From the NCBI RefSeq assembly GCF_025376885.1, contig NZ_JAHUBR010000001.1:1612001-1676000 (forward strand): a DNA stretch of 64,000 nucleotides, written 5' to 3'. This document shows, in pieces, positions 24,485 to 53,152 of the stretch (position 1 is its first letter; the number at the start of each line of letters is the position of its first letter). A program made the translations under genes and the position numbers. This DNA is from Pseudoruegeria sp. SHC-113 (lineage in GTDB: Bacteria > Pseudomonadota > Alphaproteobacteria > Rhodobacterales > Rhodobacteraceae). The notes under the pieces were generated by a model. The model saw only the letters and a list, made by a program, of their open reading frames with translations, did no database searches and was not told where the DNA came from.

Positions 24485-25528
24485 TCAGCCGCCCGTGTAG
24501 CGGCGCGCGTAGCGGGCACCGAGCGAGGTCAGGATCTCGTAGCCGATGGTGCCGGCCATCTCGGCGAGCGCATCGACCCCTTGCGCAGGGCAGAGGATGT
24601 CGAGGGCAGCAGGCACCTCGTTCAGATGGCTCACATCCACCGTGATCAGATCCATGGACACGCGGCCCGCGACGGGGCAGGGGGTGTCGCCCGCGAAGAC
24701 CTGCGCCTTGCCGCTCATCGCGCGGATCAGCCCGTCGGCATAGCCGCCGGAAATGGTGGCGATGTGGGCGGGCGCCTGTGCCGTCCAACTGCAGCCATAG
24801 CCCACGGCCTCGCCCTCGGTCAGCTCCCGGGTCTGGATGACGGGCAGGGCAATGCGCGCCACAGGCTGCGCGGCCTCAAACGGCAGGCCGCCATAAAGGC
24901 CGATGCCGGGGCGGGTGAGGTCGAAATGGTAGTCAGGCCCTAGAAGGATGCCGCCGGTGGCCGAGAGCGAGCGCGGCACGTTGAGCCCGTCCGTCATCTC
25001 GCGGAAGGCCGCGAGCTGGCGGGCGTTGGCCTCGTGATCTGGTTCATCCGCACAGGCCAGATGGCTCATCAAGAGGCGCGGCGCGAGAGAGAGTACCAGC
25101 TCGGCAACGCTGGCCCATTCGGCAGGCTCCATGCCAAGCCGGTTCATGCCGGAATCAAGCTGCACGCCAAAGGCATGGCCCGGCAGGCTCTCCACGTGGC
25201 GGGTCAGCTGCTCCACGGAGTTGAGCATCGGGGTCAGCTGCAGATCCTGCAGCATCTCGGTGTCGCCGGCCATATGGCCCGAGAACACGCAGATTTCCGG
25301 CCCCGGCCCGAGCGCATTGCGCACGGCCGCGCCTTCCTCGGCTACCGCCACGAAAAACCGCCGCGCCCCGGCCTTGGCCAGCGCCCGCGCCACACGGCCC
25401 GCGCCCAGCCCATAGCCGTCGGCCTTCACCACGGCGGCGGTTTCAACTGTGTCAGCCGACAGGCGGTCGAGCGCGCGCCAGTTCGCGGCGAGCGCATCGA
25501 GATCGATGGTGAGTGTTCCGGTTCCCAT
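24485..25528 (-). CDS. alr: Alanine racemase
   Basis: 347 residues from the ATG at 25528. A longer frame upstream runs through the repeat at 25603-25714 and is rejected. The PLP lysine is in [10 protein letters not shown] (about 35), and the second catalytic tyrosine lies in a C-terminal GYGCSW (about 250). The PLP ring-binding arginine region GRVSMDL is also present. It provides D-alanine for peptidoglycan. It leads alr-mlaE-mlaF with two-base and overlapping junctions. Confidence 0.94.
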
Positions 25529-25602
25529 GCCGACGCTTTTCACGCGCTGCTCTGCGCCGGTCAAGAGGGAAGCCGCGGCAGGCAGGCCTGCCACGGCGAC
25601 GC

Positions 25603-25714
25603 GGGGGCGCTGCCCCCGCACCCCCCGAGGTATTTCAGGCGAGAGGAAGGGGCCCCACTTTGTTCTGTAAATATCTCGGGGGAGTCGCCGAAGGCGGCGG
25701 GGGCAGAGCCCCCC
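25603..25714. repeat. Roseobacter palindromic element, two units head to head
   Basis: A complete unit on the plus strand (GGGGGCGCTGCCCCC stem, 25603-25617, then CCCCCCGAGGTATTTCAGGC...GAGAGGAAG, 25621-25649) meets a second unit on the minus strand (TCTCGGGGGA 25674-25683; GGGGGCAGAGCCCCC 25699-25713) through GGGGCCCC. The plus unit is identical over 29 bases to part of the copy inside nnrD (51716-51745). The minus unit matches the copy at 45703 except for one base. It lies between the convergent-free ends of alr and serS. Confidence 0.8.
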
Positions 25715-25785: not shown

Positions 25786-27078
25786 TCAGGCCAGTTTGCC
25801 CTCGGCTGTCAGGATCGACTTGCCGCCAAGGTAGGGGTGCAGCACCTCGGGCAGGCGGACGGAGCCGTCTTCCTGCTGGCCGTTCTCCAGCACCGCGATC
25901 AGCGCGCGGCCCACGGCGAGGCCGGAGCCGTTGAGCGTGTGGACAAACTCGGGCTTGCCGCCGGCGTCGGGTTTGAAACGCGCGTTCATCCGGCGGGCCT
26001 GGAAATCGCCGCATGTGGAGATCGAGGAGATCTCGCGGTAGGTGTTCTGCCCGGGCAGCCAGACCTCGATGTCATGGGTGCGGCGCGCGCCGAAGCCGAT
26101 GTCGCCGGTGCAGAGCACCACGGTGCGGTAGGGAAGCTCCAGTTTTTCGAGGATCGCTTCGGCGCAGCGGGTCATGCGCGCGTGTTCTTCCTCGCTCTTT
26201 TCGGGATGGGTGACGCTGACCATCTCGACCTTTTCGAACTGGTGCTGGCGCAGCATGCCCGCCGTGTCGCGGCCCGCGCTGCCGGCCTCGGAGCGGAAGC
26301 ATTGCGTGTGGGCCACGTAGCGGCGGGGCAGGTAGCTTTCGGAGATCGTCTCGCCGTTGACGATGTTGGTCAGGCTCACCTCGGCAGTGGGCACGAGCCA
26401 CCAGCCGTCCGTCGTCTGGTAGCTGTCCTCGCCGAACTTGGGCAGCTGGCCGGTGCCAACCATCATCTCCTCGCGCACCAGAACGGGTGTCCAGGTTTCG
26501 GTGAGGCCGTGCTCCTCGACGTGGGTGTCGATCATGAATTGCGCCAGAGCCCGGTGCAGCCGCGCCACGCCGCCGGACAGCACCACGAAGCGCGACCCGG
26601 ACAGCTTGGCAGCAGTCTCGAAGTCCATGCCGTCCTGCACGCCGGCCAGCTCGTAGTGTTCCTTCGGCGTGAAGGCGAAGTTGCGCGGGCTGCCGAAGCG
26701 GCGGATTTCCACGTTGTCCGCTTCATCCGCGCCCTCGGGCACATCGTCATAGACCACGTTGGGCAGGCCCATCAGCACTTCGGCAAGGCGGGCGTCTTCC
26801 TCCTTGGCCTCGGCTTCCAGGCGGGCGATTTCGTCTTTCTTTTCCGCCACAAGCGCGCGCAGGCGTTCGAACTCGGCCTCATCGCCCCGGCCCTTGGCCG
26901 CGCCGACTTCCTTGCTGGCCTTGTTACGTTCGGCCTGCGCGGTTTCGGCGGCCGCGATCTTGGCGCGGCGGGCCTCGTCGATGGCGAGGATCTCGGAGGA
27001 AAGGGAAGACAGCCCACGGCGCGCCATGGCGGCGTCGAATGCGGCGGGGTTTTCGCGGATCAGGCGAATGTCATGCAT
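25786..27078 (-). CDS. serS: Seryl-tRNA synthetase
   Basis: 430 residues from the ATG at 27078 ([10 protein letters not shown]). The N-terminal helical hairpin (about 35-100), which reads the tRNA long arm, is followed by the class II core. Motif 2 reads [16 protein letters not shown] (about 267-282) and motif 3 [14 protein letters not shown] (about 383). It charges tRNA-Ser with serine. It is divergent from yajC. Confidence 0.96.
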
Positions 27079-45691: not shown

Positions 45692-45702
45692 CGCAATAAA
45701 GA

Positions 45703-45799
45703 GGGGGCTCTGCCCCCGACCCCTGCGGGGCCTCCCCCGAGATATTTAGAGAACAAAGTGGGGCCCCATCATCTTGGCGAAAATATCCCCGCCGGAGGC
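45703..45799. repeat. Roseobacter palindromic element with a second unit
   Basis: GGGGGCTCTGCCCCC (45703-45717) is followed by CTCCCCCGAGATATTTAGAGA (45732-45752) and then, through GTGGGGCCCC, by a minus-strand unit whose reverse complement reads GCCTCCGGCGGGGATATTTTC. The plus half matches the second unit at 25657-25713. It fills the gap between a secreted protein gene and the OsmC fusion. Confidence 0.75.
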
Positions 45800-45806
45800 A
45801 TGAAAG

Positions 45807-51532: not shown

Positions 51533-53152
51533 ATGCATGACCTATTGACAGCTGCCCAAATGCGCAGCGCTGAAGCCAGTGAGATCGGGGCGGGCCGGGT
51601 GCGCGGGCTGGACCTGATGGAGCGCGCCGGGGCGGGCGTGGTGGCGGCCATCGAGGCAGAATGGCCCGCCTTTGCGGCGGGCGGGGAGGGGGGCTCTGCC
51701 CCCCGTCCTGCGGACTCCCCCCGAGGTATTTCAGGCGAGAGGAAGCGGGTGGTTGTGCTCTGTGGGCCGGGCAACAACGGGGGCGACGGTTTCGTGATCG
51801 CGCGGCTTCTGGCGGGTCGCGGCTGGGCGGTGGAGGTGTTTCTTTTTGGCGATGCCGCGCGACTGCCTGCGGATGCGAAGGTCAACCATGATCGCTGGGC
51901 CGCCTTGGGGGCGGTGCGGACCTGGCCTGCGCCGGGGGAGGCGTTTAATCCCTGGGCGTTCGATCTGATCGTGGATGCGCTTTTCGGCACCGGGCTTGCG
52001 CGGGGGCTGTCATTTGAAGCCGGGGTCGGGCGGATGCTGCCGGAATGGGATTTGCGCGAAGATCCGGCGCGGCCGCGGGTGGTGGCGGTGGATCTGCCCT
52101 CGGGGCTCTGTAGCGACAGCGGTCGGAGGCTGGAGGGCGACGGGCTCTGGGCGGATCTGACGGTGAGTTTTCACCGCTACAAATGCGGCCATGTCTTGTC
52201 GGAGGGGCCGCGCCACTGTGGCGTCCGTCGGCTGGTGGACATTGGCCTGCCTGATGAGCCTTTTGCGGGGGCGGCGCAGGAGGTGGAAGCGCCGGGGCTT
52301 GTGTTGGGCAAGGGCGATCCCTTTGGCCGGGCCACGCATAAGTTCTCCTATGGGCATGCGCTGATCTGTGCCGGGGGCTTTGGCCAGACCGGTGCGGCGC
52401 GGCTGGCGGCGCGGGCGGCGCTGCGGGTGGGGGCGGGGCTTGTGACGCTGGCCGCGCCTTCGGACGCGATGGCGGAATGTGCGGCGCAGCTGACGGCAGT
52501 GATGTTGCGACCGGCGGATGGGGCGGAGGCGCTGGCAGGGCTGTTGCAGGATCCGCGGATCACGGCGCTCTGCCTTGGGCCCGGCCTTGGGTTGGCGCGG
52601 GCGCGCGCCTTGGTGCCTGTGACGCTGGCGGACGCGGGGCCCGCGCGGGGCGTGGTTCTGGACGCCGATGCGCTTTCGGCTTTCGCGGACGCCCCGGGCG
52701 CGCTGTTTGCGGCCTTGCCCGAAAGGGCTGTGCTCACGCCCCACGGCGGTGAGTTCGCGCGGCTCTTTCCCGATCTGGCGGCGCGGCTTGCGGAGCCGGC
52801 CGTGGCCGGGCCGGCGTACTCGCGGCTGGATGCGGTGCGCGCGGCCAGTGCGCGGGCGGGCTGCGTTGTGCTGTTGAAGGGGGCAGACACGGTGATCGCC
52901 GCGCCAGACGGGCGGGCGCTCGTGCATGGGGCGGCCTATGAGCGGGCCGCGCCCTGGCTGGCGACCGCTGGCGCCGGCGATGTGCTGGCGGGGCTGATCG
53001 CCGGGCTGCTGGCGCGGGGATATGCACCGCTTGAGGCGGCGGGCTGCGCGGCCTGGCTGCATGTGGAGGCGGCGCGCGCCTTTGGCCCCGGCCTGATCGC
53101 GGAGGATCTGCCCGAGGCGCTGCCCGCCGTGTTGCGCCGGATTGGCGCTTAG
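51533..53152 (+). CDS. nnrD: Bifunctional NAD(P)HX epimerase/dehydratase
   Basis: 539 residues. It repairs hydrated NAD(P)H: the N-terminal YjeF_N epimerase carries VVVLCGPGNNGGDGFVIARL (about 73-92), and the C-terminal ribokinase-like dehydratase ends in WLATAGAGDVLAGLIAGLLA. Between residues about 50 and 72 the DNA is a palindromic repeat (51688-51745) read in frame, adding about 22 residues ([19 protein letters not shown]) that homologues lack. The stop codon overlaps the stop of the convergent Hint gene. Confidence 0.93.
   Translation: MHDLLTAAQMRSAEASEIGAGRVRGLDLMERAGAGVVAAIEAEWPAFAAGGEGGSAPRPADSPRGISGERKRVVVLCGPGNNGGDGFVIARLLAGRGWAVEVFLFGDAARLPADAKVNHDRWAALGAVRTWPAPGEAFNPWAFDLIVDALFGTGLARGLSFEAGVGRMLPEWDLREDPARPRVVAVDLPSGLCSDSGRRLEGDGLWADLTVSFHRYKCGHVLSEGPRHCGVRRLVDIGLPDEPFAGAAQEVEAPGLVLGKGDPFGRATHKFSYGHALICAGGFGQTGAARLAARAALRVGAGLVTLAAPSDAMAECAAQLTAVMLRPADGAEALAGLLQDPRITALCLGPGLGLARARALVPVTLADAGPARGVVLDADALSAFADAPGALFAALPERAVLTPHGGEFARLFPDLAARLAEPAVAGPAYSRLDAVRAASARAGCVVLLKGADTVIAAPDGRALVHGAAYERAAPWLATAGAGDVLAGLIAGLLARGYAPLEAAGCAAWLHVEAARAFGPGLIAEDLPEALPAVLRRIGA
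51688..51745 (+). repeat. Palindromic element inserted in frame in nnrD
   Basis: GGGGGGCTCTGCCCCCC (51688-51704), then TCCCCCCGAGGTATTTCAGG (51716-51735) and CGAGAGGAAG. The 29 bases CCCCCCGAGGT...GGAAG are identical to 25621-25649. Here the unit is translated as part of NnrD and leaves the reading frame intact. Confidence 0.85.

What the first reader, a model, noticed from the sequence alone, without database searches (positions are those of the whole stretch)
25603..25714. Two different repeat units fused head to head by GGGGCCCC
The unit with CCCCCCGAGGTATTTCAGG and the unit with TCCCCCGAGATATTTACAGAA share the stem GGGGGC-TGCCCCC type and face each other through GGGGCCCC. The same GGGGCCCC joins another pair at 45703-45799, with a third type of unit (CCTCCGGCGGGGATATTT). 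This suggests modular elements with a common joining point, perhaps moved by a transposase in trans.
Basis: partly seen in the sequence, partly recalled or inferred. Interest (0 to 1): 0.65.

Follow-up and report, generated by a model that had tools for sequence, protein, structure and literature searches.

The report
Paired triple-helix-like repeats between genes
The two fused units belong to a large family of short DNA repeats in Rhodobacteraceae, found mostly between genes that end facing each other, and their sequences co-vary as expected of a strand that folds back into a triple helix, so they offer a natural test of whether such triple helices matter in living bacteria.

Summary
25601-25714 holds two different repeat units head to head across GGGGCCCC, and 45703-45799 holds a second such pair. 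The genome (a Pseudoruegeria species) has 86 exact copies of two head types (reversed-pattern control: 1), 37 of a third, and 72 tail+GGGGCCCC half-sites (control 0). GGGGCCCC is each unit's own GGGG end meeting its partner's, and is largely specific to this species. In 29 fully matched pairs the two tails never belong to the same class (10.7 expected).

The main new result is the fold. Each unit reads R-loop-Y-linker-Y'-GRTATTT-purine tail. R/Y is a hairpin, and Y' mirrors Y, the three-way covariation expected of an intrastrand triple helix (20 of 21 informative T positions at the mirror place; 28 genomes). The closest known kind is the E. coli BoxC/PIT/TM-ECO intrastrand-triplex repeat; this is a new, modular, opposite-polarity variant.

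Sites are mostly shared with P. aquimaris, but unit types change in place, and a unit sits in frame inside nnrE in 8 of 28 readable family genomes. Elements favour convergent gene ends (57/102 vs 16/120). There is no RAYT transposase, and the copying mechanism is unknown.

The parts
25603..25648 (+). G-type unit: R GGGGG (25603-25607), loop CGCTG, Y CCCCC (25613-25617), linker GCA, Y' CCCCCC (25621-25626), GAGGTATTT (to 25635), tail CAGGCGAGAGGAA (25636-25648)
25649..25656 (.). joining point GGGGCCCC, the GGGG ends of the two units
25657..25714 (-). A-type unit on the minus strand: R GGGGGG (25714-25709), loop, Y CCCCC, linker carrying hairpin 2, Y' CCCCC, GAGATATTT (to 25669), tail ACAGAACAAAGT (25668-25657)
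45703..45759 (+). A-type unit: R-loop-Y-[hairpin 2]-Y'-GAGATATTT (45703-45747) and tail AGAGAACAAAGT
45760..45767 (.). joining point GGGGCCCC of the second pair
45768..45799 (-). C-type unit: head CCTCCGGCGGGGATATTT and tail TCGCCAAGATGAT; this type shows no R-Y-Y' triplex plan
51688..51745 (+). G-type unit with hairpin 2, in frame inside nnrE (adds [20 protein letters not shown])
51533..53152 (+). nnrE/nnrD-like gene (NAD(P)H-hydrate epimerase, YjeF_N type) that carries the in-frame unit
25786..27078 (-). serS, neighbour gene of the finding; its own intrinsic terminator lies between it and the pair
24485..25528 (-). alr (alanine racemase), gene on the other side of the finding; start taken at the ATG near 25528

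Best explanation
The finding is a head-to-head heterodimer of two members of a dispersed, non-coding, modular repeat family of Rhodobacteraceae. A unit is about 50-60 nt: R-loop-Y-linker-Y'-GRTATTT-purine tail-GGGG. Shown: the architecture, copy number, hetero-pairing, position between gene 3' ends, in-place change of type, and recurrent in-frame presence in nnrE. Shown by covariation: Y' is constrained to be the mirror of Y, so that R (purine), Y (Watson-Crick partner) and Y' (parallel to R) can form an intrastrand triple helix. It would be pyrimidine-motif on this strand and purine-motif (R'-R-Y) on the complement. Inferred: a transient single strand (lagging-strand template, transcription bubble or RNA) folds into hairpin plus third strand; this fold is what is kept by selection and probably what lets units be copied or converted between sites. 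Units are tolerated, and may serve as a two-way structural boundary, between convergent genes. Two units of different types are joined because two identical ones would form a long perfect palindrome that is deleted. GGGGCCCC is the contact of the two GGGG ends, homogenised within this genome.
For: Copy number against control. Mirror covariation: three searches that fixed only the hairpin and GGATATTT and left the head free returned heads that mirror the hairpin arm. There were 18 exact mirrors among 41 distinct arm/head combinations (length-constrained permutation mean 3.34, max 10, p=5e-5); 20 of 21 T's at the mirror position against 1 at the direct position; 28 genomes. Arm changes and head changes agree, for example GAGGGA..TCCCTC-GCG-CTCCCT. 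In this genome the C-run of Y' equals that of Y in 91% of 110 units (43% permuted). Hetero-pairs: 0 of 29 homotypic, 10.7 expected, never below 2 in 20,000 shuffles. Position: 57/102 convergent against 16/120, p=1e-11; several convergent intervals consist of nothing but the element, stop codon to stop codon. In-place change: 8 of 18 orthologous sites differ in units from P. aquimaris. nnrE.
Against: No structural measurement was made. The pure C/G units of this window cannot tell a mirror from a direct repeat; the proof comes from relatives with T's in the run. Pyrimidine-motif C+.G-C triplets need low pH, and stems of 4-8 triplets are short. E. coli triplex repeats did not show stable triplex in vivo by footprinting and had no terminator activity (PMC4666352). 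The hairpin-2 forms often have A instead of the mirrored T. C-type units lack the plan altogether. No copying enzyme was identified.
Confidence: 0.72

Rival explanations
1. REP/BIME-type repeats mobilised in trans by a RAYT (Y1 HUH) transposase.
For: Copy number, extragenic position at gene 3' ends, head-to-head dimers, mosaic heads and tails and patchy distribution all resemble REP/BIME.
Against: No PF01797 in this genome and only in 3 of 26 copy-rich genomes; no GTAG tag at a unit end; a Y' mirror arm is not part of REPs as described.
Confidence: 0.06
2. Bidirectional transcription terminators or 3'-end stabilisers: function at convergent gene ends keeps them, and the triple-strand covariation serves a pausing RNA structure.
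For: Strong enrichment between convergent genes, units that abut stop codons on both sides, intervals with no other terminator, other convergent intervals often carrying ordinary A-hairpin-T terminators; the pair at the finding folds strongly as a single strand, z -5 to -5.7.
Against: No T-tract after the hairpin; only weak A enrichment before it (0.27-0.47 in the last six bases against about 0.20); a unit lies inside translated nnrE; serS has its own terminator before the element; PIT/TM-ECO elements had no terminator activity (PMC4666352). The second pair folds no better than shuffles (z -0.4).
Confidence: 0.35
3. The equal run lengths come from mutation, not structure selection: quasi-palindrome template switching keeps the arms alike.
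For: Would explain equal G and C runs.
Against: Template switching copies in direct or inverted-complement order; it cannot place T's in mirror order.
Confidence: 0.05
4. Old fixed elements with no movement; differences between species are point mutations and partial deletions in place.
For: 18 of 20 sampled P. aquimaris sites map to an element-bearing site of this genome.
Against: At the same sites whole heads and tails are exchanged for other family types; in nnrE filled and empty genera alternate on the tree, most empties keep the same 38-residue spacing, and the unit is read in two phases, also within the genus.
Confidence: 0.12

Closest known systems
BoxC / PIT / TM-ECO intrastrand-triplex repeats of E. 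coli and other bacteria (PMC4666352)
   Same: Dispersed G/C-rich repeat able to form a triplex within one strand; copy number differs widely between relatives; close inverted pairs in E. coli always join type A with type B, as here only unlike tails are joined; no mobile gene found.
   Different: TM-ECO is Y-R-R' with 9-nt stems (class II); here the plan is R-Y-Y' on one strand, R'-R-Y on the other, with 4-8 triplets, plus GRTATTT, a modular tail and a GGGG end. TM-ECO showed no distance or orientation rule to genes; these often abut stop codons of convergent genes. Three-way compensatory change was shown here.
REP/BIME elements with RAYT transposases (PMC2817692, PMC3733652)
   Same: Short extragenic hairpins, head-to-head dimers, mosaic composition, gene 3' ends, some inside genes at the same site in relatives.
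   Different: No GTAG/CGTC tag, no RAYT, and a third (mirror) arm.
Rickettsia palindromic elements (described in PMC10969869)
   Same: Whole repeats sit in frame inside housekeeping genes of alphaproteobacteria.
   Different: RPEs are about 150 bp and frequent in genes; here nearly all copies are intergenic, and only nnrE was found as a confirmed in-frame site.

Membership tests
Intrastrand triplex repeats (kind: PIT/TM) | three consecutive strand segments able to form R.Y plus third strand within one strand | tested here: met
   mirror covariation in 28 genomes; run-length equality in this genome; window units
Intrastrand triplex repeats (kind: PIT/TM) | stem of at least 6 triplets as used by the ITxF search | tested here: inconclusive
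   runs of 4-8; the window units have 5-6
Intrastrand triplex repeats (kind: PIT/TM) | triplex formation of the isolated strand in vitro | not testable with these tools
   needs CD, NMR or footprinting
TM-ECO family itself | consensus CCCTCNCCC-N3-6-GGGNGAGGG-N3-GGGNGAGGG | tested here: not met
   no match in the window; opposite segment order
REP/BIME | terminal GTAG (or CGTC) tetranucleotide | tested here: not met
   aligned copies show none conserved at a unit end; definition
REP/BIME | RAYT transposase in the genome | tested here: not met
REP/BIME | many extragenic palindromic copies, head-to-head dimers | tested here: met
Rickettsia palindromic elements | frequent in-frame insertion in genes | tested here: inconclusive
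   one confirmed gene (nnrE) in this genome; a second unit called inside a gene (L207) was not checked
Intrinsic transcription terminator | G/C hairpin followed by a T-tract, with termination | tested here: inconclusive
   hairpin yes, T-tract weak; termination not testable here

The most novel reading that the evidence does not exclude
A family of mobile repeats whose replicated and selected feature is an intrastrand triple helix: natural selection keeps the third strand matched, base by base, and some host or element factor copies or converts units by recognising that fold, inserting them at stop codons and repeatedly at one codon region of nnrE.
Probability: 0.4. Interest if true: 0.88.

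Novelty: new variant of a known kind. Interest (0 to 1): 0.7.

Why it matters
Whether intrastrand triplexes form and matter in living bacteria has stayed open: the E. coli elements fold in vitro, but no in vivo role was found (PMC4666352). Here relatives supply natural compensatory changes in all three strands, which is evolutionary evidence for the third strand. That gives ready-made mutants, clean present/absent sites such as nnrE, and swaps between sister species with which to test it.

Tried and rejected
RAYT/Y1 transposase: sought in this genome and in 26 copy-rich genomes, rejected. Rfam: only tRNAs in the window. GGGGCCCC alone as signal: not above chance. Antiparallel alternative pairing of the head with the hairpin's G-arm: rejected, because T's sit in mirror, not complement, order. 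Literature for the motif strings gave only unrelated primers and human genes; a search for REP in Rhodobacteraceae gave one unrelated paper. Element as breakpoint of the rearrangement at 45.7 kb: P. aquimaris has a 41 kb difference at that place but no element at its ends, so not pursued.

Full report
Observation. The sequence at 25601-25714 reads, on the plus strand, GCGGGGGCGCTGCCCCCGCACCCCCCGAGGTATTTCAGGCGAGAGGAA, then GGGGCCCC, then the reverse of a second unit. The pair at 45703-45799 is built the same way with an A-type and a C-type unit. GGGGCCCC by itself is no commoner than in shuffles. The units are the signal: 86 exact CCCCGAGRTATTT in the 3.91 Mb genome against 1 for the reversed pattern, 37 exact CGGCGGGGATATTT against 0, and 72 half-sites TATTT-N11-16-GGGGCCCC against 0. 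By serS the window is closest to Pseudoruegeria: 94% protein identity to P. aquimaris.

Anatomy. About 110 copies with their flanks were read. A unit consists of a G/C hairpin (R-loop-Y), a linker that is either about 3 nt or a second short hairpin, a pyrimidine run (Y'), GAG/GGG/GCG, RTATTT, two or three free bases, and a purine-rich tail that ends in GGGG. Heads and tails recombine: the C head usually carries the GAACAAAGT tail, and G heads with that tail exist (L019, L074). Two units meet head to head at their GGGG ends. Most pairs have 33-36 nt between the two TATTT motifs. Two pairs have a longer centre, GGGGCCCC-N-GGGGCCCC (L047, L210). A back-to-back composite of C and G units recurs in at least L003, L013, L066 and L073.

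Pairing rule. Among the 29 pairs that match the junction pattern on both sides there are 20 t1-t3, 5 t1-t2 and 4 t2-t3, and no pair of equal tails; 10.7 equal pairs are expected, and 20,000 shuffles never gave fewer than 2. The simplest reading (inference) is that equal units would make a long perfect palindrome, which cells delete. The rule is not absolute in the genus: P. aquimaris has one pair of two GAACAAAGT tails, with an extra base (L194). In E. coli, inverted pairs of TM-ECO also always join type A with type B (PMC4666352).

The joint is species-specific. P. aquimaris has only 4 half-sites of the GGGGCCCC kind; its joints include GCGGCCG twice, CCCCCC and GGGCGC.

Triple-strand covariation. 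In this genome the number of C's in Y' equals that in Y in 91% of 110 units (43% when permuted, p=2e-4, the floor of the test), and the same tendency is seen in other genera. Runs of only C cannot show direction. Units with A in R and T in Y do. Three searches fixed the hairpin (GAGG..CCTC, GGAG..CTCC or GGGA..TCCC) and GGATATTT but left up to 28 bases between free. The free part came back as the mirror of Y: CCCCTC-GCG-CTCCCC, CCCTCC-GGA-CCTCCC, CCTCCCC-GGA-CCCCTCC, TCCCTC-AAA-CTCCCT, CCCCTCTC-AAA-CTCTCCCC, and across a second hairpin in G319 and G387. The rows analysed were picked by eye from the search output as clear hairpin units (C-type and chance hits left out), which is a limit of the test. 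Of 41 distinct combinations 18 are exact mirrors (length-constrained shuffles: mean 3.34, max 10). Of 21 T's in non-palindromic arms 20 have T at the mirror position of the head and 1 at the direct position. Exact mirrors come from 28 genomes. A parallel third strand (T.A-T, C+.G-C) on this strand, or an antiparallel purine strand (A.A-T, G.G-C) on the complement, demands exactly this order. Template switching cannot produce it. The E type of this genome (GCGAGGC-TCT-GCCTCGC-GCTCCGGGATATTT) obeys it.

Where they sit. With a codon-usage gene caller trained on 124 kb of this genome and 110 kb of P. aquimaris, 57 of 102 element sites lie between convergent genes against 16 of 120 gene pairs in the 124 kb block (p=1e-11); divergent sites are depleted. 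Tails commonly end within a few bases of the opposing stop codon, and several intervals are nothing but an element from stop to stop (L055, L050, L030, L077). Other convergent intervals of the 124 kb block often carry ordinary A-hairpin-T terminators. The given finding lies between serS and alr, which are tandem; serS has its own terminator before it. The gene calls are my own and approximate.

Comparison with relatives. The copy number of this head is 86, 47 and 1 in the three genomes of the genus; 123 of 292 genomes of the order have at least one copy, with great differences inside genera. The related head CCCCGGGATATTT was found in 7 of 240 genomes drawn mostly from other alphaproteobacterial families. 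Of 20 P. aquimaris element loci, 18 map to an element locus of this genome, and 8 of those differ in units: for example a G unit replaced by an A unit together with a changed partner tail (L197/L062, L180/L064), or a single G replaced by an A+D pair (L192/L006). The loci compared were chosen because they carry elements, so site gain and loss is underestimated. At the finding itself P. aquimaris has a pair with another head and another joint, and the uncultured relative a decayed pair.

A unit inside a gene. The third element of the window lies in frame in nnrE. In 28 readable genomes of the family 8 carry a whole unit there and most others keep one spacing of 38 residues. Filled and empty genomes alternate on the gene tree, and the unit is read in two phases, even within the genus. 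Recurrent gain at one loop is the simplest reading; precise loss is the alternative.

Mechanism, with weights. Shown: modular units, unlike pairing, place, turnover, mirror rule. Inferred: the fold is a triple helix in a transient single strand (about 0.8 for the structural constraint). Open: whether DNA or RNA, what copies the units, and whether they act on transcription. RAYT is unlikely. A terminator or boundary role is plausible from position but lacks a T-tract, and E. coli PIT elements were reported to have no terminator activity (PMC4666352).

Known kinds. By architecture this belongs with intrastrand-triplex repeats (BoxC/PIT/TM-ECO; PMC4666352), but it is not TM-ECO: segment order, stem length, tail and gene context differ. 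The main text of that paper names none of the roseobacter genera searched for; its supplements and the ITxF database were not seen, so some copies may be listed there. It resembles REP/BIME in habits but fails their tag and transposase tests, and resembles RPEs only at nnrE.

Noticed in passing
window 51533-53152 (element 51688-51745): A repeat unit lies in frame inside nnrE; the same codon region is filled by different units in 8 of 28 readable genomes of the family and empty in most others.
   Followed up: yes
window 45692-45806 against P. aquimaris contig G292:C36: Synteny with P. aquimaris breaks exactly at this element: its counterparts of the two sides lie 41 kb apart, without elements at the ends.
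   Followed up: partly
L003, L013, L049, L066, L071, L073: A recurrent back-to-back composite: G unit preceded by GGCATGAAGTCTCTGGCGCTTCGCGCCAGACCGG or close variants, in several cases with a C unit on the opposite strand before it.
   Followed up: no
L047, L210: Extended centres GGGGCCCC-N-GGGGCCCC between the two tails, which could collapse to a single GGGGCCCC by deletion between the repeats.
   Followed up: no
L021 and L023 (G000:C1 about 855.7 kb and 882.5 kb): Two element pairs are identical with all the shown flanking sequence, pointing to a recent segment duplication.
   Followed up: no
G425 (a genome of another alphaproteobacterial family): Five copies of CCCCGGGATATTT, the only genome of other families in the sample with more than one.
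   Followed up: no
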